Below, in pieces: positions 25,905 through 54,640 of a stretch of DNA of 64,000 nucleotides. Position 1 is the stretch's first letter; every line of letters begins with the position of its first letter. The stretch lies in contig NZ_CP089095.1 of the NCBI RefSeq assembly GCF_021172145.1, positions 1,612,001-1,676,000 on the forward strand, in the 5' to 3' direction. The translations under genes and the position numbers were made by a program. The notes under the pieces were generated by a model. That model saw nothing but the letters and a program-made list of their open reading frames with translations. It did no database searches and had not been told where the DNA came from. The DNA is from Flavobacterium cyclinae (GTDB taxonomy: Bacteria; Bacteroidota; Bacteroidia; Flavobacteriales; Flavobacteriaceae).

Positions 25905-26880
25905 ACCGAGATGCACCGAGTTTATTTTGAATTGGATTGTGTTGAGAGAGCTACACCGAGCGTTTCACTTATTTGAGTTATCTAACCGCACAGTTTGTCA
26001 TGCTGTAAAGCATCTCTTGGATAAGTGATTGATGATGGGTGATGGGTGATGGGTTGGCTTTTGCTTCGTAAAGCTTTGTGTTCTTTGTGCTTTCTTAGTG
26101 CGCCTTGTGGTTGAGATTTTACACAGAGCTTCACCGAGTTTCTTTTTATTTGGATTCCGTTGAGAGAGCGACACAGAACGTTTTACTTTTTTTGGAACGC
26201 GGATGAAACGGGTCCGACTAGGTGGAACGCTGGTGGTGACGGATTTTTTAGTTACCTTTTGCCTTCGAGAGCCTCAGGTAACGGCTAGAGTAGTTCTAAT
26301 AGCATACTGAATGTTATAAATATTCTTAGAAGGAATTGTCCCTTTGAGGGTTCCGACTATTCGGAATACAGGGGTGTTTGACTTATGATTTTACACCGAG
26401 CTTCACAGAGTTTCATTTTTTTCGGATTGCGTTGAGAGAGCTACACCGAGCGTTTCACTCTTGAAATTGAACTTGCCCTTGTTTTGGAACGCAGATTAAA
26501 GAAATTGAAATAATCTTTAAAATTTTAATTACTACATTATTTCTTAGTAGGAATTGTCCCCTTGAGGGGACTTTAGGGGTGTTTGACTTATGATTTTACA
26601 CCGAGATGCACCGAGTTTCTTTTTATTGGATTGTGTTGAGAGAGCTACACAGAGCGTTCCACTTATTTGTGTTTTCTAACCACAAAGTTGACAAGTGATA
26701 ATTTGTTACATACTTTTTTACACCGAGCTGCACTGAGTTTCTTTTACTTGGATTGTGTTGAGAGAGCTACACCGAGCGTTTCACTTTTGAAATTGAAATT
26801 GAACTTGCCCTTGTTCTTGTTCATGTTCATGTTCTTGTGCTTGAAATTTTTGCGTTAGCTGTTGAAAACTATGTGCTATT
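25905..26880. repeat. Dispersed-repeat island 1
   Basis: A non-coding gap with five copies of a module starting TTTTACACCGAG or a close variant (near 25909, 26115, 26390, 26594 and 26718), each followed by a T-rich tract, GTTGAGAGAG and a second CACCGAG-like block. Between them lie the heptad GGTGATG (26030-26055), a CTTTGTG/CTTTCTTAGTG block (26085-26105), and a GTCCCCTTGAGGGGAC-type hairpin (about 26555-26570, with a diverged copy near 26338). A stretch of about 570 bp (25905-26470) recurs at 29515-30095. An apparent 63-codon frame at 26667 lies wholly in repeats and is not a gene. Confidence 0.8.
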
Positions 26881-42057: not shown

Positions 42058-42122
42058 ATATTTGACTTTTTATTATATTGATAATTAAATAATTGGAATT
42101 ACTTTTTTTGTAAATTTGAGTT

Positions 42123-42677
42123 ATGGAAAAAATACCACTATATACAATTGGACATGGCAATAGAAAGCCTGAGGATTTTTTAGATATTCTAAAGAAATTT
42201 GGAATTGATTATTTAATAGACGTTCGTTCTATGCCATATTCAAAATTTAATCCTCAATTTAATCAGAATGATTTGAAGTTTTTTTTAGAAAAACATGGTA
42301 TTACTTATGTATTTATGGGCGATACTATTGGTGGGAGACCTAAAGATAAATCATGCTATGATGAAGAAGGAAAAGTGGATTATGAAATTGTAAAGCAAAA
42401 AGATTTTTTTCAAAATGGAATGGATCGATTGAAAACGGCTTATGCAAAAAATATTCATTTGGTTTTAATGTGTAGTGAGAGTAAGCCATGCGAATGCCAT
42501 AGAAGTAAATTGATTGGCAAGGTATTAGACTTAGAACAAATATCATTAAAACATATTGATGAAAATGGCAAATTAAAAGATCAAAAAAATGTAATTGCCG
42601 AGTTAAATAAAGGATTGTCTGAAGTAGATTTATTTGGACAGCCAATTAATTCAACATCAAGAAAAACATATTTATAA
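42123..42677 (+). CDS. DUF488 family protein (copy 1)
   Basis: A 184-residue DUF488 protein: LYTIGHGNRKPEDFLDIL at the start, DVRSMPYSKFNPQFN near residue 38, and CSESKPCECHRS near 118. DUF488 is of unknown function; the conserved Cys-x-E..CHR end resembles a metal or thiol site. It has its own -7 box (TAAATTTG, 42111-42118) only 4 bp before the ATG, so translation is nearly leaderless. It forms a three-gene unit with the next two genes. Confidence 0.9.
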   Translation: MEKIPLYTIGHGNRKPEDFLDILKKFGIDYLIDVRSMPYSKFNPQFNQNDLKFFLEKHGITYVFMGDTIGGRPKDKSCYDEEGKVDYEIVKQKDFFQNGMDRLKTAYAKNIHLVLMCSESKPCECHRSKLIGKVLDLEQISLKHIDENGKLKDQKNVIAELNKGLSEVDLFGQPINSTSRKTYL

Positions 42678-42679
42678 TT

Positions 42680-43159
42680 ATGGAGTTTTTTACAATAGGA
42701 GTTTATAATTCAACAGAGAAAGAGTTTTTTAATAAATTACTCGAAAATAATATTGATACCTTTTGCGATATTAGACAACGAAGAGGTGTAAGAGGAGCAA
42801 AATATTCATTTGTAAATAGTAATCGTCTGCAACAAAAGTTGGCAGATTTAGAAATTAAATATGGTTATATTCCTGATTTAGCACCAACTACAGAAATTAG
42901 AGAGCTTCAAAAAGAAATTGATTTACAAAAAGGAGAATTAAAGAGTGAACGACAAGAACTTGGAAAAGTCTTTGTTATTGAATACAAGAATAGAATTCTT
43001 AAAAACTTCAATTTTGATAATTTTCTTGAAAGTCTTGACCAAATTGGCGCAAGTAGAGTAGCTTTATTTTGTGTTGAAGAACATCATGAAGCTTGTCATA
43101 GATCGATTGTAGCTCAAAAAATCTCAACATTGTATAACAAAGAAATTACTCATTTATAA
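42680..43159 (+). CDS. DUF488 family protein (copy 2)
   Basis: A 159-residue paralogue of the preceding gene, 2 bp downstream. It keeps FFTIGVYNSTEKEFF, CDIRQRRGVRGAKYSF and the C-terminal CVEEHHEACHRS, so the putative Cys/His site is conserved, but the internal region is shorter and more charged. Two adjacent DUF488 genes suggest a heterodimer. Function unknown. Confidence 0.88.
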   Translation: MEFFTIGVYNSTEKEFFNKLLENNIDTFCDIRQRRGVRGAKYSFVNSNRLQQKLADLEIKYGYIPDLAPTTEIRELQKEIDLQKGELKSERQELGKVFVIEYKNRILKNFNFDNFLESLDQIGASRVALFCVEEHHEACHRSIVAQKISTLYNKEITHL

Positions 43160-43846
43160 ATGGAAGTTTTAATTGTTTCAAAAACACACATGACTCATAG
43201 TTATTGTGTAGGCGGCTTGGTTTTATCGAATAATAGGTATATTAGGTTATTAAATCCAGGTAATTACAATCAGCCTATGGATACCGATTTTACAATAGGT
43301 GATGTTTATGAAATTAATTTTACAAACAGACAAGATATCCATCCTCCTCATATAGAAGATGTAATTATATTATCGAAAACTTTTTTAAGAAAAATAGATA
43401 ATGTATTTGAGTTTTTAAATAGAATTAATCTAATCGATTGGAATGGACATATAGATGAAGTTTTTGATGGTAAGCTCAAATTTACACCAAGCGGTACTGG
43501 TTATATTCCAATGGAAGGGCCTCTACCAACTAAGAGTGTTGGTTTTTGGGTTACTAATAAAGATTTAGTTCGAGTTGAATTTGAAAATAGAACAAGGTAT
43601 CGTTTTCCAAATGGTTCAGATTATAGGAATATTAGCTATGTTGGTTGTCAAAACACTATTCCAAATATACCCGCTGGTACCATTTTAAGAGTTTCTTTAT
43701 CAAGAGTGTTTCCTCCAGAAAACTCACAAATCAATACACCTCGTGGATACTATCTACAATTATCTGGATGGTATCAAATTGGTCCCAATATTAATCAGGC
43801 TATAAGACCACAATTAGATGATGAATTTGATGATTTACCTTTTTGA
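43160..43846 (+). CDS. Hypothetical protein, possibly dual OB-fold, with acidic D-D-L-P-F tail
   Basis: A 228-residue protein that follows the second DUF488 gene without a gap. The strand VLIVSKTHMTHSYCVGGLVLSNNRYIRLL and a later series of strands look like small beta barrels; I believe similar proteins are called dual-OB proteins but cannot verify it. The last residues FDDEFDDLPF imitate the C-terminal tip of single-stranded-DNA-binding protein, which docks DNA-repair partners. It probably works with the two DUF488 proteins. Convergent with the WYL gene 7 bp away. Confidence 0.6.
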   Translation: MEVLIVSKTHMTHSYCVGGLVLSNNRYIRLLNPGNYNQPMDTDFTIGDVYEINFTNRQDIHPPHIEDVIILSKTFLRKIDNVFEFLNRINLIDWNGHIDEVFDGKLKFTPSGTGYIPMEGPLPTKSVGFWVTNKDLVRVEFENRTRYRFPNGSDYRNISYVGCQNTIPNIPAGTILRVSLSRVFPPENSQINTPRGYYLQLSGWYQIGPNINQAIRPQLDDEFDDLPF

Positions 43847-43853
43847 TATAAAT

Positions 43854-44873
43854 TTATTCTTTATAAATATTACTTCCATTCAAGAGTCTATTTTTTATAT
43901 TTTTTTTTAAAAGTTCGGTTTCCATTACTTTTACACTATCTCCATAACTTAAAATCAAGCGTTCTAATTCATAATTTGGTATAACCTTGATTTTGACTTC
44001 TAATGTTTCTTCATTTAGCCATTTGTGTTTTTGAGTTTCGTGTATAGGTTTGTTTTCCATGTATTTACCTGTCAATTGATTGAAATGTAAAACAATTTCT
44101 TCTAATTTACCATCAATAGGTTTACTAACTCCTATCATATCACTAAAATAATCTTGCCAATCAATTGTTGTGTTTGGGATGAATTTTACATTACTTGTTT
44201 CAATAGACACGATACGATCAATGGCTACATTCCAATCGGGTTTCATGGTTTCTTCATGAAGTCCAAAAAGGAACCAACGGTTGTTGTATTGTTTTAAATA
44301 GTAGGGATGTAGTGTAAACGTATAAGGTTGTTCTGCTTTAAAATCTTTGTAAGTAATCTGAATTGGTTCTTGATTTTGAGTAGCATTGTATATTTGACTA
44401 AAATATTCCATACCTTTTAAATCTTGATTGGTATCAAAACCTATAAATGGTTGCTTGTTATTATCTACTTTTAAATCGTATTTTAATTTGGCAATGATTT
44501 CTTGTATTCCTTCAAATTGGGGCATGCCTTCAAATTGTGATAATACATGAATAGCCGATTGGAATTCACTTAACTCAATTTCATTTAATGGTGCGTTGTT
44601 AATGGAAAAGTTGAGGTCTTCATAACGGAAAATTCTTTTTTTACCATCAAATTCTTCTGCTAATTCAATGCTCCACCCTTCAGCACTTTTCATAAAGGCA
44701 ATATCGTCTTGCATTTGTCGTAATTTGATGCAGTGGGATTCATCATCAAATAATTCCATCAACTTTTCATTTAAGGTTTCTAGTAATAGTTCTTTGGTGT
44801 ATTTTTTATAAGGATTTCTAAAACAAGCATCTAAAATTTTATAGCGAATTAGAGGATTTTTTGTTACAGCCAT
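43854..44873 (-). CDS. WYL-domain transcriptional regulator
   Basis: A 339-residue YafY-type regulator on the reverse strand. An N-terminal winged HTH (about residues 5-70, with helix IKLRQMQDDIAFMK) precedes a WYL domain (about 165-235, strand RWFLFGLHEE, AIDRI) and a C-terminal WCX-like domain. It is divergent from the retron 1 RNA gene. Its reverse-strand -7 box TATATTTG (44918-44911) and the retron's -7 box lie on either side of the palindrome TATGCA-N7-TGCATA (44934-44952), so it probably binds there and controls both itself and the retron. A related palindrome precedes the helicase gene at 47942. Confidence 0.9.
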   Translation of the reverse strand: MAVTKNPLIRYKILDACFRNPYKKYTKELLLETLNEKLMELFDDESHCIKLRQMQDDIAFMKSAEGWSIELAEEFDGKKRIFRYEDLNFSINNAPLNEIELSEFQSAIHVLSQFEGMPQFEGIQEIIAKLKYDLKVDNNKQPFIGFDTNQDLKGMEYFSQIYNATQNQEPIQITYKDFKAEQPYTFTLHPYYLKQYNNRWFLFGLHEETMKPDWNVAIDRIVSIETSNVKFIPNTTIDWQDYFSDMIGVSKPIDGKLEEIVLHFNQLTGKYMENKPIHETQKHKWLNEETLEVKIKVIPNYELERLILSYGDSVKVMETELLKKNIKNRLLNGSNIYKE

Positions 44874-44910
44874 TGCAGATTTTTTATATATTTACAAAAC
44901 ATTGAATAAC

Positions 44911-44918
44911 CAAATATA
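44911..44918 (-). promoter_or_regulatory. -7 box of the reverse-strand WYL gene
   Basis: TATATTTG on the reverse strand matches TAnnTTTG. The predicted start near 44904 gives a leader of about 30 nt to the ATG ending at 44873. The palindrome at 44934-44952 lies 15 nt upstream. Confidence 0.5.
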
Positions 44919-44933
44919 AGAAATAAAATTGAA

Positions 44934-44969
44934 TATGCAGTTAAAATGCATAGTATTGAAATACGTTTG
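44934..44969 (+). promoter_or_regulatory. Operator TATGCA-N7-TGCATA and -7 box of retron 1
   Basis: A perfect 6-bp inverted repeat with a 7-nt spacer (44934-44952) contains the core TGCA-N7-TGCA (44936-44950). Eleven nt later comes the -7 box TACGTTTG (44962-44969). The predicted start near 44976 coincides with the first base of the retron a1 arm. The operator also lies between this promoter and that of the divergent WYL gene. Confidence 0.68.
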
Positions 44970-44976
44970 CAGAGTC

Positions 44977-45209
44977 AAACAACAAGTTCTTTGAAAACCG
45001 TAGTAATAGTATTGAATTGTCTATCGAAAGATAGGCTTGCCTGCTGGAAAAAGTAGTTTTATTTTTTCAAATCGGTAGGTGGTTTTGGTTATATTTAGTT
45101 TCTAGGTATTGAAGTAGAGAAGTAAGACTTTACGAGCATTTTCAAAAAGATACCGCAATCAGCAACTTAATAGCCAAAACTGAATGTTAGTGGTGTTATT
45201 GTTGTGTTT
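44977..45209 (+). ncRNA. Retron 1 msr-msd non-coding RNA (predicted)
   Basis: Boundaries come from a candidate a1/a2 pair: AAACAACAA (44977-44985) with TTGTTG-TG-TTT (45199-45209), a 2-nt bulge in an otherwise continuous pairing. The msr part has a hairpin GTCTATC-GAAA-GATAGGC (45019-45036). The msd part is enclosed by a 12-bp stem GGTTTTGGTTAT (45081-45092) with ATAGCCAAAACT (45170-45181, two G-T pairs), inside which GGTATT / GATACC (45105-45110 with 45149-45154) and GTAA-GACT-TTAC (45122-45133) pair. A promoter ends just upstream and a retron RT follows at 45346. The a1/a2 pairing is imperfect, so the ends may be off by some bases. Confidence 0.62.
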
Positions 45210-45345
45210 AAGATCTTAGCGCAACACCCTTACTAATATATTAGATTTATTATTAATATATTATTTTAATAGTTATAAATTGATTATTTGAGTACATATA
45301 GAAAGAATAACAGCTACGGTTTTTTAAGACAACCATACAATTAAT

Positions 45346-46674
45346 ATGATACTAACTCCAGAATTTAAATTTCAAGTACAAACCGCATTTAAAGAAATGC
45401 AGTCAAAATCTGATTTTTTAGAGTTACTAAATATAGCCAAACAAATGATGTATGGTGATAAAACAGTTCCTTTTTCAGAAAAGCAATTGAATTATTTTAT
45501 TACCAAAGATAGTCAAGTTATAAAATCAAGAGTGGATTTTAGAATTGATTTATCAAAGTTTGAACCTTTTATAGAAGAAAATGTAGTTATAGAAAAAAAG
45601 AACATCAACAGAAAAGATTGTTACGTACCTTTTATAATTAAAAAAAAATCTGGTCAAGATAGAACGATACATGCACCTGTAAAAGGATTAAAAGAGTTTC
45701 AAAAAGCATTAAATATTATTTTACAATGTTTACATGAACCGCATACTGCTGCTACAGGATTTGTAATAGGAAAATCAATTGTAGATAATGCTAAGAAACA
45801 TATTGGACAAACGTATGTTTACAATATAGATTTAAAAGATTTTTTTCCAAGTGTAGATCGTTCACGTGTTTGGGGTAGGTTGCTAGTAGCACCCTTTAAT
45901 CTTGGTACAACAGTTGAAAGAAAAAATATAGCCAATTTTATTGCTACTCTTTGTTGTACTCCTATGGAAGTGGAACGATTTAAAGAGGGTAATTGGATAA
46001 AAATTACAACTTCAGTTTTGCCACAAGGGGCACCTACTTCGCCCACTTTGACTAATATTATTTGTGAAAAGCTAGATAAGCGTTTAAATGGTGTTGCAAA
46101 GCGATTTGGTTTAAATTATTCGCGTTATGCAGATGATATTACGTTTAGTAGCAAGCATAATGCGTATGAAGTTAGCCCTACAAAAGTTGAAAAAATATTC
46201 GCTTCAGGAACTACCTTTGATTGTGAAGTTCGTAAAATAATTACCGAACAAAATTTTCATATTAAAGAAACTAAAGTTCGCTTACAAAAGAGAGGATATC
46301 GTCAGGAAGTGACGGGTTTAGTTGTTAATGATAAAATTAATGTAACCCGCCTTTATGTAAAGCAATTACGTCAATGGTTGTATTTGTGGGAACGTTATGG
46401 ATATGACAAGTCTTATGCTATTTTTCTAAATATTTATTTAGCGGATAAAGGTCATGTAAAGTCAGAACAACCTAACATGGCTATGGTTATTGAGGGCAAA
46501 TTATTATATTTGAAAATGGTGAAAGGGGCAGATGATGGAACTTATTTAAAACTAAAGAAGCGGTTTGATTTGTTACTTGGAACAACATCTAAAAACAATT
46601 CTGAAGCAGTTAATATTTTAGATTTGATATTTGATGTTGGACTTGATGAAGCAATGACGCATTATAAAAAATAG
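45346..46674 (+). CDS. Retron reverse transcriptase 1
   Basis: A 442-residue retron-type RT. The retron marker NAxxH is N148-A-K-K-H152, followed by the first catalytic Asp region DLKDFFPSV. LPQGAPTSP (225-233), YADD (261-264) and the retron marker VTG (322-324) are all present. These two markers separate retron RTs from group II intron, DGR and Abi RTs. The enzyme primes from a conserved G 2'-OH in its own RNA to make msDNA. It is longer at the N-terminus than compact retron RTs (about 80 extra residues). It is followed at once by a 264- and a 134-residue gene, the presumable accessory/effector proteins. Confidence 0.92.
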   Translation: MILTPEFKFQVQTAFKEMQSKSDFLELLNIAKQMMYGDKTVPFSEKQLNYFITKDSQVIKSRVDFRIDLSKFEPFIEENVVIEKKNINRKDCYVPFIIKKKSGQDRTIHAPVKGLKEFQKALNIILQCLHEPHTAATGFVIGKSIVDNAKKHIGQTYVYNIDLKDFFPSVDRSRVWGRLLVAPFNLGTTVERKNIANFIATLCCTPMEVERFKEGNWIKITTSVLPQGAPTSPTLTNIICEKLDKRLNGVAKRFGLNYSRYADDITFSSKHNAYEVSPTKVEKIFASGTTFDCEVRKIITEQNFHIKETKVRLQKRGYRQEVTGLVVNDKINVTRLYVKQLRQWLYLWERYGYDKSYAIFLNIYLADKGHVKSEQPNMAMVIEGKLLYLKMVKGADDGTYLKLKKRFDLLLGTTSKNNSEAVNILDLIFDVGLDEAMTHYKK

Positions 46675-46675
46675 T

Positions 46676-47470
46676 ATGGCTAAATATAGTAAAGAGAGTT
46701 TAGAAAAGTTGCTCCTTTTGATTGATGAAATATGCAGTCAGGAGGAGTATTTGTGGTTTAAGGAAAAATTACAACATAATTATTCTCAACTAATTAATAT
46801 AGAAAATAAAAATTTTGATTCTATTAATAGAATTTATGAATATTGTATAAAAGATATTATTGATAAACAAGCTAATAAGTTTTATGATGATTTTATCTTA
46901 ATAGACATAAAGAATGTTTTAGTTAGTGATTTTATTAGAATGGAACATTTTAGAAGAGATGATAATTTTGAGGATTTTTGTCTAGCGATGTTTCAACAAA
47001 TAGAAAATATAGTAGTCTATTTATTTTCTTACTTTGAGTTAGATAAAAAAATAATATCAGGATATAATCAACGAGTAATTTCTATATATAGTAGAGAGGA
47101 GAAAAAACTAGTAAGATCTAATAGTGGATTACATTTAAGTAATTTTATATTTCAAAAATATAAATTAGAAATTCCTTTTGAATTAACAAATCAAGAATTT
47201 CATTTTAATAATAAAATTAGAGCTGTTTTATATTATTTTTTCTTCAAAGAAACTATAGAATTTAATTCTAATAAGTTCGAAGAAATTTATAATACAGCAA
47301 ATAGTTTATATCAAATGCGTAATTTGAACCATAGAGGTGGAGTTAAAAGTGATTATCAACAAAAAATTATGGATGAAATTATTCCAAACCACAACAAGTA
47401 TTATTTTAAATTTTTAGGTTTTTTAGAAGACTTTGTTAGTACAATTAATAGAAATATAAAAGCATCATGA
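46676..47470 (+). CDS. Retron 1-associated hypothetical protein, HEPN-like candidate
   Basis: A 264-residue, almost all-helical protein that starts 1 bp after the RT stop. I cannot name its family. Near residue 232 it has YQMRNLNHRGG, an Arg-Asn...His motif at the end of a helical bundle, which recalls the R-N-x(2-4)-H motif of HEPN ribonucleases, although the spacing here (three residues) is one short of the usual Rx4-6H. Its location makes it the leading candidate for the retron toxin/effector. The next gene overlaps by 4 bp. Alternative: a structural accessory protein without enzymatic activity. Confidence 0.5.
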   Translation: MAKYSKESLEKLLLLIDEICSQEEYLWFKEKLQHNYSQLINIENKNFDSINRIYEYCIKDIIDKQANKFYDDFILIDIKNVLVSDFIRMEHFRRDDNFEDFCLAMFQQIENIVVYLFSYFELDKKIISGYNQRVISIYSREEKKLVRSNSGLHLSNFIFQKYKLEIPFELTNQEFHFNNKIRAVLYYFFFKETIEFNSNKFEEIYNTANSLYQMRNLNHRGGVKSDYQQKIMDEIIPNHNKYYFKFLGFLEDFVSTINRNIKAS

Positions 47471-47871
47471 AAAATTATTCATTTAGTGAAATATCAATAG
47501 AATGGCACAAATATCTTATGGATAATGTTATTCATGAAAGTTATTATATTGAGTTTACTAAAGCAAAATTTCCATATATCATTAATCTAAAAAATATAAT
47601 TGAATCAGGAATAAATATTTCTACAAAATGGGGGATTATTACATTGGAATTTAAAACATATTCACAGAAACAAGAGTTTTCAAGTTTTATAAAATTAAAT
47701 TATAATGAAGACAAATTCCCATGCAGAATTTATTTTGAGAGTTCAAATAAAACAATAAGTTTTTATAATTCAAAAGATAAAACTTTTATTAATCAAAGTG
47801 ATGAGCTGGATTATTTTATAAAAATCTTGAACAATGTTTTAATTGATATATATAATTTTAAAAAATCTTAA
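47467..47871 (+). CDS. Retron 1-associated small hypothetical protein
   Basis: A 134-residue protein overlapping the previous gene by ATGA, so it is translationally coupled. Mixed helix/strand pattern, basic, with no known motif, signal peptide or membrane segment. With the 264-residue protein it may form an effector pair or a toxin/antitoxin-like pair gated by the msDNA. No family recognised. Confidence 0.55.
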   Translation: MKNYSFSEISIEWHKYLMDNVIHESYYIEFTKAKFPYIINLKNIIESGINISTKWGIITLEFKTYSQKQEFSSFIKLNYNEDKFPCRIYFESSNKTISFYNSKDKTFINQSDELDYFIKILNNVLIDIYNFKKS

Positions 47872-47876
47872 TCTAA

Positions 47877-47912
47877 TACGCACTTCATCTGCATACATGA
47901 TTCTTTCCTTTG
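47877..47912 (+). promoter_or_regulatory. TGCA-type operator and -7 box before the RecD-like helicase
   Basis: TACGCA-N7-TGCATA (47877-47895) differs from the retron 1 operator by one base in the arms. Its core ends 11 nt before TTCCTTTG (47905-47912), one base off TAnnTTTG. The start codon at 47942 follows about 30 nt later. This links the helicase gene to the retron 1/WYL regulation. Confidence 0.52.
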
Positions 47913-47941
47913 TATCGTTGAACAAATAAAACCAACATACT

Positions 47942-49291
47942 ATGGAAACAGCTATTACCATTTTAGATCATTTACAGTTTGATTGTCCTACTGCGCAACA
48001 AAGAGTAGCTTTATTGGCTATGAGTGATTTTGTGAGTGATACAAACAAAGATGATTTCTATATTTTGTGTGGTGCGGCTGGAACAGGGAAGACCTCTATC
48101 ACAACAGCTTTAATTGGTTATTTGAACGCTAAAGCGATTCATTATAAAATTGCAGCTCCAACAGGTAGAGCAGCACGAATTTTAGGGCGTAAATCTAAAA
48201 CAGTAAATAGTACTATTCATTCGTTAATTTATAACGTACAAACAAACTCTGAAACGGGTGAAATTAAGTTTGTTTTAAAAGAAAATACAATAAAAGACAG
48301 AACAATTTTTATCATTGATGAAGCTTCTATGATAGCTTCAAATCAACAAAGTGAGGAGGGTAGTTTGTTTAAATCTGATAATTCATTATTAAAGGATTTG
48401 ATTGATTTTGTTAAGAATGGAAACCCTCTGAATAAAATTATTTTTTTAGGAGACAAAAATCAATTACCTCCAGTTAATGAAACAGAATCTAAAGCCTTAT
48501 CCAATGAATATTTACAGGCTAAATTTAATATTCAAGGGAAGTCTTATTTATTAACTGAGGTAAAAAGACAAGAAGATGGAAGTTTTATTTTAAAGAATGC
48601 TACAAATATTAGATTAGGAATAGAATCAAATGCTGAAAAAGTTACCTTGTTAGGTGTTGAAAAGAAAACAATTTCGCAAGCATCTACAGACTATGTTAAT
48701 GAATATTTGTCTAATGGTTCCGATAGTATTATTTCAATTGGTGCTACTCATAAAATGAATAAAATGTTTAATGGTGTTGTTCGTGAAAAAATTTATGGAT
48801 CGAGTGCAAAAGTAATTGAAGTAAATGATTTGTTACTTATTACAACTACATGGAAAAGAAATGATTATCAGCTTTATAGTGGTGATCATGTTATAGTTAG
48901 TGAAGTAAATCTTAATGCAATAGAAATGGTTGCGGGATTGCATTTTATACCTGTTAAGTTAGTTTCAAAAACACTTAAAGGTGCAGAAGAAATTATTGAA
49001 GATTATATTTTATTAGAAAGTATAATCCATCCAGAAGGATTACAGCTTGAACAAGAAAATCGTTTACGTCATGAGCGATTTTCAAAAAACAAAGTGTACA
49101 GAGAATCTCTTAATCCATCTGATGATAGATACGTAGGAGCTATAAGAGCAAGTTATGGTCATTCAATTACTTGTAACAAGGCACAAGGTGGTGAATGGGA
49201 TAAGGTATTAATAAATTCTTTTTACATGCCTACTTTAAAGTATCAATATACAGCAGTAACAAGAGCAAAGTCAAATTTAGTCTTGTATTAA
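47942..49291 (+). CDS. RecD2/Dda-like SF1 DNA helicase
   Basis: A 449-residue SF1B helicase. Walker A GAAGTGKTS is near residues 37-45, motif Ia APTGRAA near 77, DEAS (Walker B, IIDEASM) near 125, GDKNQLPP near 179, and the UvrD_C_2-type end SYGHSITCNKAQGGEW...TAVTRAKSNLVLY. It is the size of phage Dda, shorter than RecD2, and lacks an N-terminal domain. It unwinds DNA 5'-3' in known relatives. It stands between the two retrons with its own TGCA-type operator, and is followed 47 bp later by a DnaB-like gene. Family certain; link to the retrons inferred from position and operator. Confidence 0.9.
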   Translation: METAITILDHLQFDCPTAQQRVALLAMSDFVSDTNKDDFYILCGAAGTGKTSITTALIGYLNAKAIHYKIAAPTGRAARILGRKSKTVNSTIHSLIYNVQTNSETGEIKFVLKENTIKDRTIFIIDEASMIASNQQSEEGSLFKSDNSLLKDLIDFVKNGNPLNKIIFLGDKNQLPPVNETESKALSNEYLQAKFNIQGKSYLLTEVKRQEDGSFILKNATNIRLGIESNAEKVTLLGVEKKTISQASTDYVNEYLSNGSDSIISIGATHKMNKMFNGVVREKIYGSSAKVIEVNDLLLITTTWKRNDYQLYSGDHVIVSEVNLNAIEMVAGLHFIPVKLVSKTLKGAEEIIEDYILLESIIHPEGLQLEQENRLRHERFSKNKVYRESLNPSDDRYVGAIRASYGHSITCNKAQGGEWDKVLINSFYMPTLKYQYTAVTRAKSNLVLY

Positions 49292-49338
49292 AATGAATTT
49301 TAATTTCTATATTTAGAAAGTCAAACAAATAAAAAAAT

Positions 49339-50319
49339 ATGATGAATCCAATACAATCCACCTCAATAAAAGAATTATCAAATGAAATCATTGAAAATAT
49401 AACCAATGAACGCCCCAATAAAAATGTAATTCCAACAGGATTCAAGTATTTTGATCAAGAGTTTGGAGGATTATCCTTAGGTGAGTTGGTGGTTATTGGA
49501 GGTAGACCCGCTATGGGAAAAAGTTTATTTGTTGTGAATTTGGTTTCTAATATTTGTAACCAAGAATCGATATTGTTTTTATCTTTTGATTTAACACCTT
49601 CGGTTCTAAGTGCTCGCTTGTTGTCTGATAGAACAGGTGTTTCAGTGACCAAAATTATTCATAATCAATTAATCGATTCCGATAAAGAGTTACTTAAAGA
49701 TGCTGCCAAAACATTAGAGAAAAGCAAATTGTTTATCAGTGATGTTGGGGAAGCTAATGTAAATGAAACTATTCAAATTATTAAAGATCATGTTGCTGCT
49801 TACCAAACTAAAATAGTTGTAATTGATTATTTGCAATTATTAGGAATAGGAAAGTACAATACAGGACGAGAAGCAGAAATTGGTCATATTTGTAGGTTGT
49901 TAAAAATGTGTGCTAAAGAATTGAATATCTGTATATTACTTTTAAGCCAGTTAAGTCGTGCAGTTGAAGTGAGAGGTAGTAGTAAGAGACCTCAATTGTC
50001 TGATTTACGCGATAGTGGTTCTATTGAACAAATAGCGGATAAAGTTTGGTTGTTGTATCGACCAGAATATTATATGATTGACGAATTAGATGATGTAGAT
50101 AGAACTCCTACAGATTCATTAATGATGTTGTTTGTTGCAAAGAATAAAAATGGTAAAATAGGAACGAGTTATTTCAAGCGTGACTTACACTTTACTAGAT
50201 TTACTTCTTTAAATAATTATTTTAAAAGTTTTGACATACATCCTCAACGTCTTTCAGAATTAGAAAATCCTTTTAATTTTAAAGATTTTGATACTAGTAG
50301 CGACGAAACACCTTTCTAA
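49339..50319 (+). CDS. DnaB C-terminal-domain (RecA-fold) ATPase
   Basis: A 326-residue stand-alone version of the DnaB helicase motor domain. TGFKYFDQEFGGL and Walker A GRPAMGKS (about 54-61), Walker B VVIDYLQLL (about 156-164), LLLSQLSRAVE and KRPQLSDLRDSGSIEQIAD are all typical. The N-terminal DnaB dimerisation domain is missing, so it is not the replicative helicase and could act as a RecA-like strand or loading factor. The C-terminus ends S-D-E-T-P-F, similar to an SSB tip. The start at 49339 has a second Met two residues on. The retron 2 RNA begins only 4 bp after its stop. Confidence 0.88.
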   Translation: MMNPIQSTSIKELSNEIIENITNERPNKNVIPTGFKYFDQEFGGLSLGELVVIGGRPAMGKSLFVVNLVSNICNQESILFLSFDLTPSVLSARLLSDRTGVSVTKIIHNQLIDSDKELLKDAAKTLEKSKLFISDVGEANVNETIQIIKDHVAAYQTKIVVIDYLQLLGIGKYNTGREAEIGHICRLLKMCAKELNICILLLSQLSRAVEVRGSSKRPQLSDLRDSGSIEQIADKVWLLYRPEYYMIDELDDVDRTPTDSLMMLFVAKNKNGKIGTSYFKRDLHFTRFTSLNNYFKSFDIHPQRLSELENPFNFKDFDTSSDETPF

Positions 50320-50323
50320 AACT

Positions 50324-50475
50324 AAGCCGTTGGAATAAATTTATGAAGTCAAACCTAAATATTAAAATGACTTAGAGGTTGTGTTCCGCAATCCATTCAA
50401 TACTATTGTTAGGTACTAAAGATTACTAGTGAACAAAGTTCACTAGTATATTTCAAAGATAATAACCAACGGCTT
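50324..50475 (+). ncRNA. Retron 2 msr-msd non-coding RNA (predicted)
   Basis: The flanks are a perfect 10-bp inverted repeat, AAGCCGTTGG (50324-50333) and CCAACGGCTT (50466-50475), the expected a1/a2 pair. Inside, AAGTC (50346-50350) / GACTT (50369-50373) or ACCTAA (50354-50359) / TTAGGT (50409-50414) can form msr stems. The msd side carries a perfect 11-bp hairpin TACTAGTGAAC-AAA-GTTCACTAGTA (50424-50448). The RNA is about 152 nt, and the retron RT gene begins 13 nt after it. It starts directly behind the DnaB-like gene, so it is either read through from there or has a weak promoter inside that gene. Structure and position are as in known retrons. Confidence 0.8.
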
Positions 50476-50488
50476 TTATTCATTTAAT

Positions 50489-51568
50489 ATGACTTTAATA
50501 AATAAAATTCATACCAGATTAGCGGAGTATAATAGTTATTATTATGGTCCTTTTGAAGCTATTGAATTTAGATTTGAACAAACATTTTTTGTATCAAAAT
50601 TACTTTCCCTTATTGAAATTTCTGATTTATGCTTGTTATTAAAAACCAGACTTTTTGATATTGAGCACGTAATTAACCAACCACAATATGAAACTTTTCA
50701 AATCCCAAAGAAAAGAGGAGGTAGTAGACTTATACAAACTCCAGAATCTCAATTAATGTTTATACAATCGAGATTAAATTTTTATTTACAAAATTATTAT
50801 CATTTAATTCGTCCTGAATGTGTTCATGGGTTTGTAATAAATCCTAATAAAAACGAGAAAAAATGTAATATCGTTGAAAATGCAAAAATCCACGTTCAAC
50901 AAAAATATGTTCTAAATCTTGACTTGAAGGATTTTTTTCCTTCAATACAAGCTTATCGTGTAAAAGAATTATTTTTATCTGATTATTTTAGATATACAGA
51001 ACATATTGCTACTGCACTAACTTTGTTGGTTACATATGATGGAAAACTTCCAATTGGGGCACCAACTTCACCAGTAATTTCTAATTTTATATGCTTAGAA
51101 TTGGATGAAGCATTATCTGTTTATTGTAAGAAAAATGAGATACGTTATTCTCGTTATGCCGATGATTTAACTTTTTCATCTAATCATTTTATTTCAAAAA
51201 CAATTATAACGGATTTAGAGTATATAATTAATTCTTTCCAATTCAAATTGAATCCCAAAAAAACACGAATAAAAACTAAAAACAGAAAGCAAACTGTTAC
51301 AGGGCTTGTAGTGAATGAAAAAGTAAATGTAGATCGTAAAATAATTAAAATGGTTCGGGCTATGTTGCATGATACATTACAAAATGGTATTTCAAAAGCG
51401 GCAAAAAAACATTTTAAAAGTATAAATGAAATAAGAAATACTAGTGAAGCTTATTTTTTGAATCGTTTAGAAGGATACATAAATTTTATTGCTCAAGTTC
51501 GCGGTAATGATGATTCTATAGTGATAAAATTTAGATATTATTATAAAATGATATTCCAACTAGCATAA
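50489..51568 (+). CDS. Retron reverse transcriptase 2
   Basis: A 359-residue compact retron RT. NAKIH (131-135) matches the NAxxH marker, DLKDFFPSI (145-153) carries the first catalytic Asp, PIGAPTSP follows near 188, YADD is at 223-226 and VTG at 270-272. It is about 80 residues shorter than RT 1 and clearly a different lineage, so the two retrons are not a recent tandem duplication. It lies 13 nt behind its predicted RNA and is followed by a DUF3127 OB-fold gene, with no obvious toxin gene downstream. The upstream DnaB-like and helicase genes may be the functional partners. Confidence 0.92.
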   Translation: MTLINKIHTRLAEYNSYYYGPFEAIEFRFEQTFFVSKLLSLIEISDLCLLLKTRLFDIEHVINQPQYETFQIPKKRGGSRLIQTPESQLMFIQSRLNFYLQNYYHLIRPECVHGFVINPNKNEKKCNIVENAKIHVQQKYVLNLDLKDFFPSIQAYRVKELFLSDYFRYTEHIATALTLLVTYDGKLPIGAPTSPVISNFICLELDEALSVYCKKNEIRYSRYADDLTFSSNHFISKTIITDLEYIINSFQFKLNPKKTRIKTKNRKQTVTGLVVNEKVNVDRKIIKMVRAMLHDTLQNGISKAAKKHFKSINEIRNTSEAYFLNRLEGYINFIAQVRGNDDSIVIKFRYYYKMIFQLA

Positions 51569-51582
51569 AGTCTTGGCAAATA

Positions 51583-51606
51583 AAATATGCTCTTATTAGC
51601 ATATTT
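51583..51606. other. Perfect 8-bp hairpin between retron 2 RT and DUF3127
   Basis: AAATATGC-TCTTATTA-GCATATTT forms an 8-bp stem with an 8-nt loop. It lacks a clear T-run, so termination is doubtful. Its TATGC/GCATA arms resemble the TGCA-type operator with different spacing, and CATATTTG at 51600-51607 is one base off a -7 box, so it may instead be a regulatory site for the DUF3127 gene. Confidence 0.4.
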
Positions 51607-51638
51607 GTTAATTAAATTTTAAATCAAATAAAATTCTT

Positions 51639-51980
51639 ATGAATATAAAAGCTAAATTAATTCAATTACTCCCTTTACAAACTGGAATGGGAAAAAATGG
51701 TCAGTGGCGAAAACAAGATATTATTGTGGAAACTGATGGTCAGTATCCTAAAAAAATATGTATAAGTATATGGGGAGATAAAATCAATGAAAAGCAATTA
51801 AAAATAGGCAATCTATTAGAAATTGATTTTGATTTGGAAAGTAGAGAATTTAATGGTAAATGGTATACCGATATTAGAGCGTGGAAAATTGTTTCTGAAG
51901 ATGATAAAATAACATTTACCATAAATGAAGATTTGCCTTCTGATGAAGAACCAAAAGATAACGATGATTTACCGTTTTAA
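51639..51980 (+). CDS. DUF3127 protein (OB-fold, SSB-like tip)
   Basis: A 113-residue DUF3127 protein: AKLIQLLPLQTGMGKNGQWRKQ, then ETDGQYPKKI, ISIWGDKI and LESREFNGKWYTDIRAWKI. DUF3127 is a small OB-fold family of Bacteroidota, related to single-stranded-DNA-binding proteins. The tail is acidic and ends N-D-D-L-P-F, like SSB, where that tip recruits repair proteins. Placed right after a retron RT and close to two helicase-like genes, it could coat msDNA or other single strands, or replace host SSB in the system. Confidence 0.82.
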   Translation: MNIKAKLIQLLPLQTGMGKNGQWRKQDIIVETDGQYPKKICISIWGDKINEKQLKIGNLLEIDFDLESREFNGKWYTDIRAWKIVSEDDKITFTINEDLPSDEEPKDNDDLPF

Positions 51981-51995
51981 AAACTATAATAATTT

Positions 51996-52307
51996 ATGGA
52001 TAATATAATTACAACAAAATGTAGAACTTGTGGTTTTACTAATGAATTCGGTTTAGGTGGTGGTAGATAAAACTTACTGCCCAGTACCAGCTATCAACAA
52101 AGAAACGTTGGAATTCGAAAACATAAACCATACGAGCACAAAAACTCAGACAAATATCTTTTCTATTCAAATGATGAATTAAAAGGAATAAATACTAATG
52201 ATAAAACATTTAGTAATTTCAATTTATACTTCAATGAAGAAAGAAATTACTGTCCGAGCTTTAAAAATAAAACCTTGGCTTTTAGAATTACTATGTATTT
52301 AGATTAA
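51996..52307 (+). pseudogene. Small zinc-ribbon gene with in-frame stop
   Basis: ATG 51996 opens 24 codons with a zinc knuckle C-R-T-C, ends at TAA (52068-52070), and the same frame continues open for another 78 codons to TAA 52305-52307. The second part carries N-Y-C-P-S-F, where a second C-x-x-C would be expected, and ends FRITMYLD. This is best read as a 102-codon zinc-ribbon gene damaged by one nonsense change and perhaps a lost second knuckle Cys. A sequencing error or stop readthrough cannot be excluded. Confidence 0.5.
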
Positions 52308-52345
52308 ATCATTAAATTGCATTTATAGAGGAAATTAACAAATAA

Positions 52346-53098
52346 ATGAAAGTTATCAAAACGAATAAAAAAGCTAAAAATCAGTCCATTATAGTATATA
52401 AGTTACACCAACTCGATTGGTTGGAATATATTTCTATTGGCCTATGTTTGTGGTTTGTGTTTTATCCTAGACCTTATGACTATTTGTTACTAGCGTTGTT
52501 GTTACTTCCTTTTGTGGGAATGTTTTTGAATGGTTTAAACAAGCCCAGTATTGCTTCGTTGGTAGAAATTGATCGTGATTCAAAAGACGAGTATGATGTA
52601 GCGGATTTTATTGATTTACCTGCTTGGGCTATTGTAGTTCGTACTTTGTTAGATTATGAAACGGATTCTTTTGTAGCGGTTATTATCGCAGGTACTATTG
52701 CTTTTGTGGGAATTTGTTTATTTTTGTTGGTTACGCATCAGCAAATTTCGGATTCGAATAAAGACAAGTGGTGGATTTATGGTTCGATAGTTTTTAGTTT
52801 TTTTATTTATAGTTATAGTGCTGTTGTGGCTGTGAATTGTACGTTTGATTATTCGGAACCTAAGGAATATCATACCGAGGTGATTGATAAGCGTATCAGT
52901 AGAAGTAGTAAAGGTAGAAGAACGTTTTATGTTAAAGTAAAACCTTGGGGACACCATTATGACGCGGAGAATATCTCTGTTTCTCCCCAAGAATATAAGC
53001 AGTATCAGATTAATGATAAGGTGGCGGTAGAGTACAAGGAGGGGTTGTTGGGGATTCCTTGGTATTATTTGGATGGAGAAGTAAAAAGTAAAAAGTAA
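52346..53098 (+). CDS. Hypothetical membrane protein
   Basis: A 250-residue protein with four to five hydrophobic helices (about residues 30-45, 47-66, 108-132 and 145-165) and a C-terminal soluble part of about 80 residues rich in strands (YHTEVIDKRIS...FYVKVKPWG). The C-terminal pattern resembles the small beta domain of some DUF3592-like proteins, but this is uncertain. The next region is a repeat island, and no partner gene is close. Confidence 0.6.
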   Translation: MKVIKTNKKAKNQSIIVYKLHQLDWLEYISIGLCLWFVFYPRPYDYLLLALLLLPFVGMFLNGLNKPSIASLVEIDRDSKDEYDVADFIDLPAWAIVVRTLLDYETDSFVAVIIAGTIAFVGICLFLLVTHQQISDSNKDKWWIYGSIVFSFFIYSYSAVVAVNCTFDYSEPKEYHTEVIDKRISRSSKGRRTFYVKVKPWGHHYDAENISVSPQEYKQYQINDKVAVEYKEGLLGIPWYYLDGEVKSKK

Positions 53099-53099
53099 A

Positions 53100-53440
53100 A
53101 AGTGAAAAGGGAAAAGTAAAAAGTGAAAAGGGTATGCTTCACTGCGTAAAGCGGAAGCCTACGATGTAGGAGATTCCTAATCTGCGGAATGACAGCTTTG
53201 ACTGCGTAAAGCGATTGCTTACTGTGTAGGAGATGCTGAAACGACCCCGAAGCGTCGGGACAGCATGACAAGGAGGATATGAGTTCAGCATGACAAGGGA
53301 TAGAGAATGTTGAATGATGAATGTTTTGACAGTTTGATGAATGCTCTCTGACAATGAGTGATGTATATCGGTTCTGAAGAGTTGGCACAAGCAAACACCA
53401 AATTTTAAAAATTATAAAATAATATAGCAACAGCAAGCAC
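53100..53440. repeat. Intergenic repeat island (CTGCGTAAAGCG / GGAGATTCCTA type)
   Basis: After a short AAAAGTGAAAAG slippage tract come two copies of an ACTGCGTAAAGCG block followed by a GTAGGAGA block (about 53138 and 53200), then a CCCCGAAGCGTCGGG palindrome-like element (53244-53259) and CAGCATGACAAGG twice. On the reverse strand this is the widespread CTTGTCATTCCG...GAATCTCC repeat of Bacteroidota. Reading frames predicted here on the reverse strand follow the repeats and are not genes. Confidence 0.7.
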
Positions 53441-53444
53441 AACA

Positions 53445-54470
53445 ATGAAATACCTAGTTTTTTTACTACTTTTTCTTACATCTACACTTGTAACGTTTGG
53501 ACAGCAAAATACTATTGAAAAACAAATTGATAGTTTAATTTTGTCTACAACTACAAAGCCTTTTAACGGTGTAATTCTTATTTCACAAAAAGGGCAAACC
53601 AACTATTTTAAAACATTTGGCTATTCGGACATTGTTAAAAAAGAGCCTTTACAACCCAATGATCAATTTGTAATAGGTTCAATTAGCAAACAATTTACAG
53701 CAATTTTAGTGCTTCGAGAATTTGATAAAGGGAATGTTGACTTATTTACACCCATTCGTAACTACTTACCTGAATTGACGCAAAGTTGGGCAGATACGGT
53801 TACTGTGCATCATTTGTTGACGCATATGCATGGTATTACTCAATTAGACAAACCAACAAGTTTTCCAGTTGGGACACAATATTCCTATTCACAAATTGGT
53901 TATGATTTATTAGCTAAAATTATTGAAAGTACTTCTGGTAAATCATTTGCAATGCTTTCAAAAAACTTATTTGAGGAATGTGGAATGAAAAACACGTTCC
54001 ATCCTGACGTTAAAGCATATACTAATTTGGTTAAAGGGTATACAGAAAATGAAAATGGTATCATTGAATTTGAAACCGAAACATTTCAAAACTATGTTGC
54101 TGCTGGTTCTTTCTTATCTACAGCCGAAGATTTAGCTATTTGGAACGAAAAATTTTATAGTGGAAAATTGTTAAAAAGGAGTACACTGAAAATGGTAAAG
54201 ACCAAACAAAAGGGAGCTGTTCGTAATCACCCAATATTTGGAGTTACGGAATATGGATACGGAATAACGGTTGATACCAAAGATAATGTTTTGCAACTTG
54301 GACAGACCGGTTTTGCTCCTGGTTTTGTTTCGATGAACTTTTATTTTCCAAAAACGAAGACAAGTGTAATTGTGCTTGAAAATGTTGCTTATGAAACTGA
54401 TGATTTGAAGAAAACGTTTTATTTTCATACTGCAATTTTAGATATTATAAGAAATAAGATTATAAACTAA
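53445..54470 (+). CDS. Serine hydrolase, beta-lactamase class C family
   Basis: A 341-residue exported protein with a signal peptide ending near residue 20. The S-x-x-K catalytic motif is S79-I-S-K82. A Tyr motif (YSQIGYD, near 149) and a Gly-rich LGQTGFAPG near 286 stand for the second and third active-site elements of the class C beta-lactamase/DD-peptidase/esterase fold. The third motif lacks the usual Lys-Thr-Gly. It probably acts as a periplasmic peptidase or esterase. Repeats flank the gene on both sides. Confidence 0.88.
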   Translation: MKYLVFLLLFLTSTLVTFGQQNTIEKQIDSLILSTTTKPFNGVILISQKGQTNYFKTFGYSDIVKKEPLQPNDQFVIGSISKQFTAILVLREFDKGNVDLFTPIRNYLPELTQSWADTVTVHHLLTHMHGITQLDKPTSFPVGTQYSYSQIGYDLLAKIIESTSGKSFAMLSKNLFEECGMKNTFHPDVKAYTNLVKGYTENENGIIEFETETFQNYVAAGSFLSTAEDLAIWNEKFYSGKLLKRSTLKMVKTKQKGAVRNHPIFGVTEYGYGITVDTKDNVLQLGQTGFAPGFVSMNFYFPKTKTSVIVLENVAYETDDLKKTFYFHTAILDIIRNKIIN

Positions 54471-54489
54471 CGTTGAATGATGAATGGGT

Positions 54490-54640
54490 TATGGATAGAA
54501 TGGGGAAGGTGGGCTTTACTGCGTAAAGCAAAAGCCTACGATGTAGGAGTTTCCTATTTTGGCGGAATGACAGCTTTGACTGCGTAAAGCGTGTGCCTAG
54601 GGTTAGGAGATTCCTAGCGGGCTCGGAATGACAAGTAATA
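54490..54640. repeat. Intergenic repeat (CTGCGTAAAGC / TAGGAGATTCC type)
   Basis: Two ACTGCGTAAAGC blocks (about 54518 and 54579) each followed by CCTA..TAGGAG and a GGAATGACA motif, the same family as 53138-53280. Lies between the serine hydrolase and the next gene. Confidence 0.7.

What the first reader, a model, noticed from the sequence alone, without database searches (positions are those of the whole stretch)
44977..51980. Possible composite system: two retrons bracketing a Dda/RecD-like helicase and a DnaB-motor protein, closed by an OB-fold protein
All genes run the same way with short gaps: retron 1 RNA-RT-two proteins, SF1 helicase, stand-alone DnaB C-domain, retron 2 RNA-RT, DUF3127. 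The set reverse transcriptase + helicase + RecA-like motor + ssDNA-binding protein makes a plausible single-strand DNA handling machine. The helicase has a retron-1-type operator, and the retron 2 RNA starts 4 bp after the DnaB-like stop. I know of no described defence system with this content. It could be a chance stacking of separate modules.
Basis: inference. Interest (0 to 1): 0.78.

Follow-up and report, generated by a model that had tools for sequence, protein, structure and literature searches.

The report
Two retrons with a shared operator
A Flavobacterium-like bacterium carries two neighbouring reverse-transcriptase defence units, one next to a likely RNA-cutting toxin and a DNA helicase and the other next to a shortened, probably slowed-down relative of the cell's own replication motor, and they seem to be switched on together.

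Summary
Both reverse transcriptases are retron-type with conserved a1/a2 RNA ends. Relatives show two conserved modules, not one fixed machine. A: WYL regulator / RNA1 / RT1 / HEPN-fold protein / Dda-like helicase. B: DnaB C-domain / RNA2 / RT2 / DUF3127. A helicase of this superfamily follows in 14 of 16 RT1-clade loci; RT2 directly follows the DnaB-like gene in 6 of 6. B sits behind A in 3 of 8 evaluable loci, so stacking recurs but is optional.

(1) A promoter-operator, TGCA-N7-TGCA-N15-TTTG, precedes RNA1 and the helicase (one mismatch there) and nothing else in the 64 kb at that spacing; it precedes many cassettes in related islands. B has its own copy in some loci but none before the DnaB-like gene here, so it is probably read from the helicase promoter. 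(2) The DnaB-like protein keeps ATP-binding motifs, but two motifs that I recall as hydrolysis residues are replaced.

I read this as two retron systems under one WYL switch. The single machine remains possible, not shown. New variant of a known kind.

The parts
43854..44873 (-). WYL-domain regulator (339 aa), divergent from RNA1; proposed common repressor
   Evidence: Pfam WYL 36.0 bits (cut-off 21.8), WCX 21.6 bits (cut-off 23.9, not reached); homologue found by tblastn in 16 of 22 compared loci, the window included. Binding to the operator not tested.
44936..44969 (+). Promoter-operator P1: TGCA-N7-TGCA-N15-TTTG, before RNA1
   Evidence: Only exact match in the window; 0 in 60 simulated windows
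44977..45345 (+). Retron 1 non-coding RNA region; a1 about 44994-45004, a2 about 45313-45323
45346..46674 (+). RT1, retron-type reverse transcriptase, 442 aa (NAKKH, YADD, VTG)
   Evidence: one clade with 13 relatives in a FastTree tree
46676..47470 (+). E1a, HEPN-fold protein, 264 aa; likely RNase toxin/effector of retron 1
47467..47871 (+). E1b, 134 aa, no recognised family; tblastn finds it only in the window among 22 loci compared
47879..47912 (+). Promoter-operator P2: CGCA-N7-TGCA-N15-TTTG, 30 nt before the helicase start
   Evidence: 11 helicase upstream regions aligned
47942..49291 (+). Dda/RecD-like SF1 helicase, 449 aa
   Evidence: Pfam AAA_30, UvrD_C_2; PHROG Dda-like helicase 187 bits; clade of 12 apart from the housekeeping paralogue and M16A
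49339..50319 (+). DnaB C-domain protein, 326 aa, no N-terminal domain; Walker A/B intact, SLEM and AKHRNG motifs replaced by SFDL and AKNKNG
   Evidence: Pfam DnaB_C 224.6 bits; residue counts
50320..50488 (+). Retron 2 non-coding RNA; a1 about 50324-50333, a2 about 50466-50476
   Evidence: 6 loci aligned, core GCCGTTG/CAACGGC in 6 of 6; coordinates read by eye
50489..51568 (+). RT2, retron-type reverse transcriptase, 359 aa (NAKIH, YADD, VTG)
   Evidence: one clade of 6
51639..51980 (+). DUF3127 protein, 113 aa, matches a phage ssDNA-binding family; ends DDLPF like an SSB tip (tip recalled)
   Evidence: Pfam 105.3 bits; PHROG single strand DNA binding protein 80 bits; ends in LPF in 6 of 6 loci

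Best explanation
Two retron anti-phage systems stacked in a defence island and switched together by one WYL repressor. Shown: both RTs are retron-type with conserved a1/a2 RNA ends; RT1 sits with a HEPN-fold protein and usually an SF1 helicase; RT2 sits with a headless DnaB and DUF3127; RNA1 and the helicase carry the same promoter-operator, and module B carries it in other loci but not before its DnaB-like gene here. Inferred: the WYL protein binds that operator and represses both units until infection or DNA damage raises its ligand (for the WYL protein PafBC that is ssDNA). Retron 1 then makes msDNA, RT1-msDNA holds the HEPN RNase silent, phage interference with that complex releases it and growth stops. 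The helicase probably works upstream, as DNA sensor or msDNA remodeller. In retron 2 the DnaB-like protein is the likely effector or sensor: it should bind ATP and join a DnaB-type ring on ssDNA but turn over poorly, so it could report on or stall a phage (or host) replisome, with DUF3127 covering ssDNA.
For: RT1 clade with helicase: 14 of 16 loci; of the 8 found by RT searches, 6. Helicase, M16A or M16B near other RTs: 0 of 70 loci, some with short flanks, and no helicase match in 5 family-genome RT loci. HEPN-fold gene directly after RT1 in 11 of 16. Hel and HEPN-fold lists share 24 contig lengths of 4 kb or more (80 and 77 lengths; null mean 0.19, largest 4). RT2 directly after DnaB-like in 6 of 6, a1 core 6-15 nt after its stop. 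Operator: 23 exact in 379 kb of these loci, 1 in 1154 kb of controls; copies for module B in L137, L138 and, with two mismatches, L082. HEPN fold. DnaB motifs changed in 77 of 77 readable close relatives, unchanged in 26 of 26 long replicative DnaB. BrxR has two boxes in one island (PMC9122601, passages); PafBC WYL domains bind ssDNA (PMC11804915, abstract).
Against: No function has been measured for any part. Helicase absent from L164 and replaced by a 1455-aa DEAD helicase in L163. The same helicase clade follows non-RT modules in 3 of 12 loci: an AAA_15 ATPase pair in L089 and L091, a NACHT protein in L092. WYL gene not found in 6 of 22 loci, although 5 of those (L091, L095, L138, L234, L235) have operator sites with at most one mismatch. 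Retron 2 has no recognisable toxin. One of the 70 other-RT loci (L225) has a DnaB-like match, 31%. The operator rule came from some of the loci it was then counted on, and the control loci are mostly viral. Foldseek gives no HEPN hit at E 0.001. The roles of the changed DnaB residues are recalled, not computed.
Confidence: 0.6

Rival explanations
1. One integrated machine: both msDNAs, the helicase, the DnaB-like ring and the ssDNA-binding protein form one ssDNA-handling complex.
For: Same order in window, L076 and L077; shared operator and probable read-through from the helicase promoter; 4 further contig lengths shared by the helicase and DnaB-like protein lists.
Against: A without B in L078, L080, L081, L090; B without this helicase in L082 and L138; DUF3127 alone behind the helicase in L093. 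L076 is closely related to the window.
Confidence: 0.15
2. A defence hotspot: unrelated cassettes collect at a WYL regulator because they carry a compatible operator, with no functional link beyond shared control.
For: The same operator precedes type I methylase-like genes, AAA_15-type ATPase genes, a UG19-type RT and WYL itself in sister islands; modules swap freely.
Against: Within modules the partners are not free: RT2 after DnaB-like in 6 of 6, HEPN-fold gene after RT1 in 11 of 16, helicase of this superfamily in 14 of 16 RT1-clade loci against 0 of 70 other RT loci.
Confidence: 0.2
3. Prophage or plasmid replication genes (helicase, DnaB, SSB-like) that happen to lie between two retrons.
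For: Helicase, DnaB-like and DUF3127 all match phage DNA-metabolism families in PHROGs.
Against: Viral contigs: no relative of the DnaB-like protein from 5 pattern matches and at most 33% identity in 7 loci found with the alignment; at most 33% identity for the helicase in 33 loci. Relatives lie next to RTs and other defence-type genes; changed motor motifs do not suit a replicative helicase.
Confidence: 0.05

Closest known systems
Type IX retron (retron-Kva2: HEPN, winged-helix protein, ncRNA, RT; PMC13405049, passages seen)
   Same: Retron RT with a HEPN-fold partner gene
   Different: RT1 scores 149.5 bits with PADLOC RT_IX against 330.6 with RT-Protease_XI; here the order is RNA-RT-HEPN and an SF1 helicase follows; no winged-helix partner was recognised
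PADLOC retron types XI (RT-Protease) and XII (RT-TIR)
   Same: Best-scoring RT models for RT1 (331 and 307 bits) and among the best for RT2 (320 and 301 bits)
   Different: Pfam finds only RVT_1 in either RT, no fused protease or TIR; partners are separate genes
PDC-M16 defence candidate in PADLOC (helicase M16A with TBP-TOTE domain, M16B with S1CSD-TOTE domains)
   Same: Occupies the same slot after the retron module in L095, L096, L160, L234, L235; same helicase superfamily
   Different: Window helicase lacks the C-terminal TBP-TOTE part, M16B is not found in the window, and the two helicases are separate clades
WYL regulators BrxR and CapW (PMC9122601, PMC9122588, PMC9122589, passages seen)
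   Same: WYL-domain regulator beside a defence locus, palindromic operator at a promoter, two boxes in one island for BrxR of pEFER
   Different: Operator sequence and layout differ (TGCA-N7-TGCA, 15 nt upstream of TTTG), and it marks many different cassettes, two retron modules among them
Replicative helicase DnaB of Flavobacterium
   Same: About 40% identical over the C-domain, same acidic PF tail
   Different: No N-terminal domain; SLEM to SFDL and AKHRNG to AKNKNG; next to a retron RNA

Membership tests
Retron | Retron-type RT with YxDD, NAxxH and VTG motifs (motif names recalled) | tested here: met
   RT1 NAKKH, YADD, VTG; RT2 NAKIH, YADD, VTG; PADLOC and NCBIfam retron models
Retron | Structured RNA upstream of the RT closed by a1/a2 inverted repeats | tested here: met
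Retron | Makes msDNA | not testable with these tools
   Needs bench work
Retron | Linked effector gene | tested here: inconclusive
   RT1: HEPN-fold gene directly after it, activity not tested. RT2: the DnaB-like gene is its only partner present in 6 of 6 loci, no recognised toxin
HEPN proteins | HEPN fold and R-x(4-6)-H motif (motif recalled; R-phi-xxx-H in PMC13405049) | tested here: inconclusive
   Fold supported by VIA-align rows but not by Foldseek E-values. R, N, H, R invariant in 61 of 61; spacing R-x3-H in the window, R-x4-H in L076, L078, L079, L081, L090
Type IX retron | RT of the type IX subfamily | tested here: not met
   RT_IX ranks 23rd among the models listed for RT1
Type IX retron | Winged-helix protein in the operon | tested here: inconclusive
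   E1b has no family match and was not folded
Retron types XI and XII | RT fused to protease or TIR | tested here: not met
   Only RVT_1 found in RT1 and RT2
PDC-M16 | M16A helicase with C-terminal TBP-TOTE domain | tested here: not met
   Window helicase matches M16A positions 2-481 of 721 and has no TBP-TOTE match
PDC-M16 | M16B partner | tested here: not met
   No tblastn match in the window at E 1e-5 with two M16B queries
BrxR/CapW-type WYL regulator | WYL and WCX domains, beside defence genes | tested here: inconclusive
   WYL over its curated cut-off; WCX under it, 21.6 against 23.9 bits
BrxR/CapW-type WYL regulator | Binds a palindromic operator and represses | not testable with these tools
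   Operator found; binding needs EMSA
DnaB replicative helicase | N-terminal domain plus hydrolysis-competent C-domain | tested here: not met
   326 aa, Pfam C-domain only; motif replacements

The most novel reading that the evidence does not exclude
A new retron architecture whose protein partner is a detuned mimic of the host's replicative helicase: a headless DnaB that binds ATP but hydrolyses poorly, keeps the host DnaB acidic tail, and is controlled by msDNA, so that the cell senses or poisons replication forks during infection. It is coupled, through one WYL switch that itself may sense ssDNA, to a second retron with a HEPN RNase and a Dda-like helicase. The island-wide operator would let any defence cassette plug into the same alarm.
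Probability: 0.3. Interest if true: 0.86.

Novelty: new variant of a known kind. Interest (0 to 1): 0.66.

Why it matters
If true, it adds two retron layouts (RT with HEPN and SF1 helicase; RT with a catalytically altered DnaB and an SSB-like protein) and a simple wiring rule for defence islands: a portable operator in front of each cassette. It makes two questions testable: whether retrons watch the replisome, and whether one regulator arms several systems at once. I found no description in print in these searches of one open-access library: retron with DnaB (12 papers, listing only, none on this by title), retron with DUF3127 (0), retron with tripartite, classification, effector and helicase (17, listing), retron with HEPN, helicase and effector (10, listing), 'TOTE conflict' (0), PDC-M16 (0). 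The 2020 retron classification paper I looked for is not held, so this is weak evidence of novelty.

Tried and rejected
Operator: first tested the palindrome GTTTG-N6-CAAAC; perfect once only, none within 2 mismatches before the helicase, 63 matches in the window against 48.8 expected. Replaced by TGCA-N7-TGCA.

DnaB-like tail: I first took the DxxPF tail as a special SSB-like addition; the long DnaB of 26 of 26 Flavobacterium-group loci ends the same way, so it is probably inherited.

Other: viral origin of helicase and DnaB-like gene not supported. Plasmids: one DnaB-like hit, 37.8%. Rfam: no match in 42000-54500. No tRNA in the window. DUF3127: one solved-structure hit at E 0.69, not convincing. 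DnaB-like searches of 100 relatives of G744 and of 100 genus genomes, largely overlapping the earlier 398, found only known cases. Sigma-70 promoter and terminator scans: 74 against 60.9 and 5 against 2.8 in shuffles. TOTE papers not found or not held. PMC12548924 and PMC7159879 (passages) hold nothing on this layout in what I saw.

Rows dropped: of the 52 sites with at most one mismatch in 18 loci, 40 went into the base counts. Left out: L076 RNA1 (identical to the window), 3 that lie near a gene (one before a 423-aa gene in L078, one with N16 before an AAA_15-type gene in L079, one 105 nt before a HEPN fragment in L093), and 8 others without a gene start close by. In L089 and L160 the site lies inside the annotated open frame, which I assume starts later. 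The RT tree omits L076 RT1 (split by a frameshift in the draft), L164 RT (split in two frames) and 39 of 57 other RT loci that gave no frame passing my length and motif filter. In one search contig lengths under 4 kb were cut and only the first 71 of 119 DnaB-like rows were used.
Full report
What is there. The window lies in a 3.0-Mb single-contig genome. I take it for a Flavobacterium because two same-genus genomes have contigs of the same length as named records (G810 with Flavobacterium sp. CECT 9288; G718 with F. branchiophilum); this is inference. RT1 and RT2 are 33-40% identical where they align and fall in two separate clades.

Retron RNAs. Upstream of RT1, 8 loci align with a closing a1/a2 helix that changes on both sides in step (CCGTAG/CTACGG, CCGAAA/TTTCGG, CTGAAG/CTTCAG); 13 of 32 predicted pairs have two-sided changes. 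Upstream of RT2, 6 loci share the a1/a2 core; 7 of 32 pairs have two-sided changes. The RNA2 a1 core begins 6, 7, 7, 9, 9 and 15 nt after the DnaB-like stop codon, so RNA2 is probably transcribed together with the DnaB-like gene or from inside it.

Module A, found through the helicase. A genome-contig scan gave 8 loci, 6 with the whole helicase; all 6 have WYL (divergent), RT1 and then the helicase. Genome searches at E 1e-70 found it in 5 of 397 family and 2 of 398 genus genomes, the window's own included in both. That makes 12 loci with this helicase clade: RT1 in 9 (window, L076-L081, L090, L093); an AAA_15 ATPase plus a 321-aa protein in L089 and L091; a NACHT protein in L092 (Pfam was run on the L089 ATPase, L091 is its relative by clustering).

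Module A, found through RT1. The RT1 profile matched 20 of 397 family genomes at E 1e-30; the five below 1e-130 (window, L090, L095, L096, L160) all have a helicase after a variable slot. In L095, L096 and L160 and in two Chryseobacterium plasmids (L234, L235) it is the longer PDC-M16A type, followed by PDC-M16B; PADLOC was run on L096 and L160, Pfam on L096 and L234, the rest rests on tblastn. Two viral-contig relatives differ: L163 has RT, HEPN-fold gene and a 1455-aa DEAD helicase; L164 has RT pieces and a HEPN-fold gene, no helicase. In sum 14 of 16 loci. One of the 16 is the window and 7 were found only through the helicase; of the 8 found by RT searches (46% identity or more) 6 have it. 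None of 70 loci around other RT matches (L165-L233, L236; some with short flanks, mostly viral) holds helicase, M16A or M16B, nor do 5 other family-genome RT loci hold the helicase (L094, L097, L098, L161, L162). Helicase and HEPN-fold protein lists share 24 contig lengths.

The effector slot. A HEPN-fold gene directly follows RT1 in 11 of 16 loci. E1a and 7 relatives share an N-terminal KESLEKLL segment; R215, N216, H219 and R220 are invariant in 61 of 61. The model matches HEPN toxins, the HEPN part of AbiA and Csm6 best in VIA-align, not significantly in Foldseek. In L077, L095, L160, L234 and L235 the slot holds a histidine-kinase-like protein, a small protein and a receiver-domain protein (Pfam for L077; tblastn for the rest).

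Module B. In a 398-genome genus search the close DnaB-like family appears in 4 genomes (window, G744, G533, G718); the other 31 matches are long DnaB proteins at 39-42%. With L076 and L077 there are 6 loci, and RT2 is directly downstream in all 6. DUF3127 is present in 5; L137 has another small gene at its contig end; in L138 DUF3127 comes first. In L093 DUF3127 follows the helicase without DnaB-like or RT2.

The motor. The close DnaB-like set (79) keeps Walker A and B. SLEM is SFDL or SLDL in 73 of 77 with letters (others SFDI, SFDV, TFDL, SFNL), and AKHRNG is AKNKNG or AKYKNG in 77 of 77 with letters; 26 of 26 long DnaB proteins have SLEM and AKHRNG. In 45 more distant C-domain proteins no SLEM is seen, but the second change appears in only one of the 40 whose motif was listed. 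I recall these positions as catalytic glutamate and arginine finger of DnaB-type motors. The SF1 helicase keeps the motifs I checked.

The shared switch. Aligning 11 helicase upstream regions exposed an element that also lies before RNA1: two TGCA boxes 7 nt apart, then 15 nt, then TTTG. In the window the only two N15 sites with at most one mismatch are before RNA1 and before the helicase; one N14 site with a mismatch lies at 10701, not near a listed gene start. In 18 island loci (379 kb) there are 23 exact sites and 52 with at most one mismatch; in 124 control loci (1154 kb) 1 and 22. Nine of 12 helicase genes have a site with at most one mismatch 23-30 nt before the start; L081 and L089 have weaker ones in the alignment; L092, where no WYL gene was found either, has none. 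Other genes behind such a site: RNA1 in 8 of 9 short-helicase RT1 loci (not L090), M16A, DUF3127 (L077, L082, L138), type I methylase-like genes (L078-L081, L090; my reading of the sequence, no family search), AAA_15-type genes, the UG19-type RT and WYL itself (L080, L081). Module B has a site before DnaB-like in L137, before DUF3127 in L138, and a two-mismatch one before DnaB-like in L082; the best candidate before DnaB-like in the window and in L077 has five mismatches, and before DUF3127 in the window four. I infer that B is read from the helicase promoter here. TTTG is the kind of -7 element I recall for Bacteroidota promoters.

Reading. WYL repressors with two boxes in one island are known (BrxR), CapW binds palindromes at the -10 site, and a WYL protein can sense ssDNA (PafBC). 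The control principle is therefore known, but here it spans two retron modules and a set of exchangeable cassettes. Gene content does not support the step from co-regulation to one machine, because the modules separate in relatives. Mechanism beyond regulation is inference, as marked in Best explanation.

Limits. L076 is closely related to the window.

Noticed in passing
43160-43846: Dual OB-domain (DuOB) protein beside the WYL gene also ends in an acidic tip like that of SSB (DDLPF).
   Followed up: no
L082:13921-16229: A UG19-type RT followed by a 204-aa protein with an RNxxxH stretch takes the place of RT1 upstream of DnaB-like-RT2-DUF3127, behind the same operator.
   Followed up: partly
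L089:7297-10140; L091:6844-9731; L083:6896-9659: An AAA_15-type ATPase plus a 321-aa or similar partner is another cassette of these islands, twice followed by the same helicase; L083 keeps only the first 22 codons of the helicase.
   Followed up: partly
L163:10094-14458: A 1455-aa DEAD-type helicase sits where the SF1 helicase normally follows RT and HEPN-fold genes.
   Followed up: partly
L138:7647-15992: Hsp70-like, UvrD-like and histidine-kinase/receiver-like genes precede DUF3127-DnaB-like-RT2.
   Followed up: partly
56877, 57235, 57655: GTTTTAGTTTCCTAAC occurs three times at 358- and 420-nt spacing; related ATTTGxGTTTTCTAAC copies at 26665, 29601 and 30095 (seen).
   Followed up: no
51588-51615: Inverted repeat between RT2 and DUF3127, seen by eye, that could be a weak terminator or attenuator; the terminator scan did not list it.
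   Followed up: no
39091-42057: 988-aa protein that reads like a type I restriction helicase subunit (no family search run); no operator site near it.
   Followed up: no
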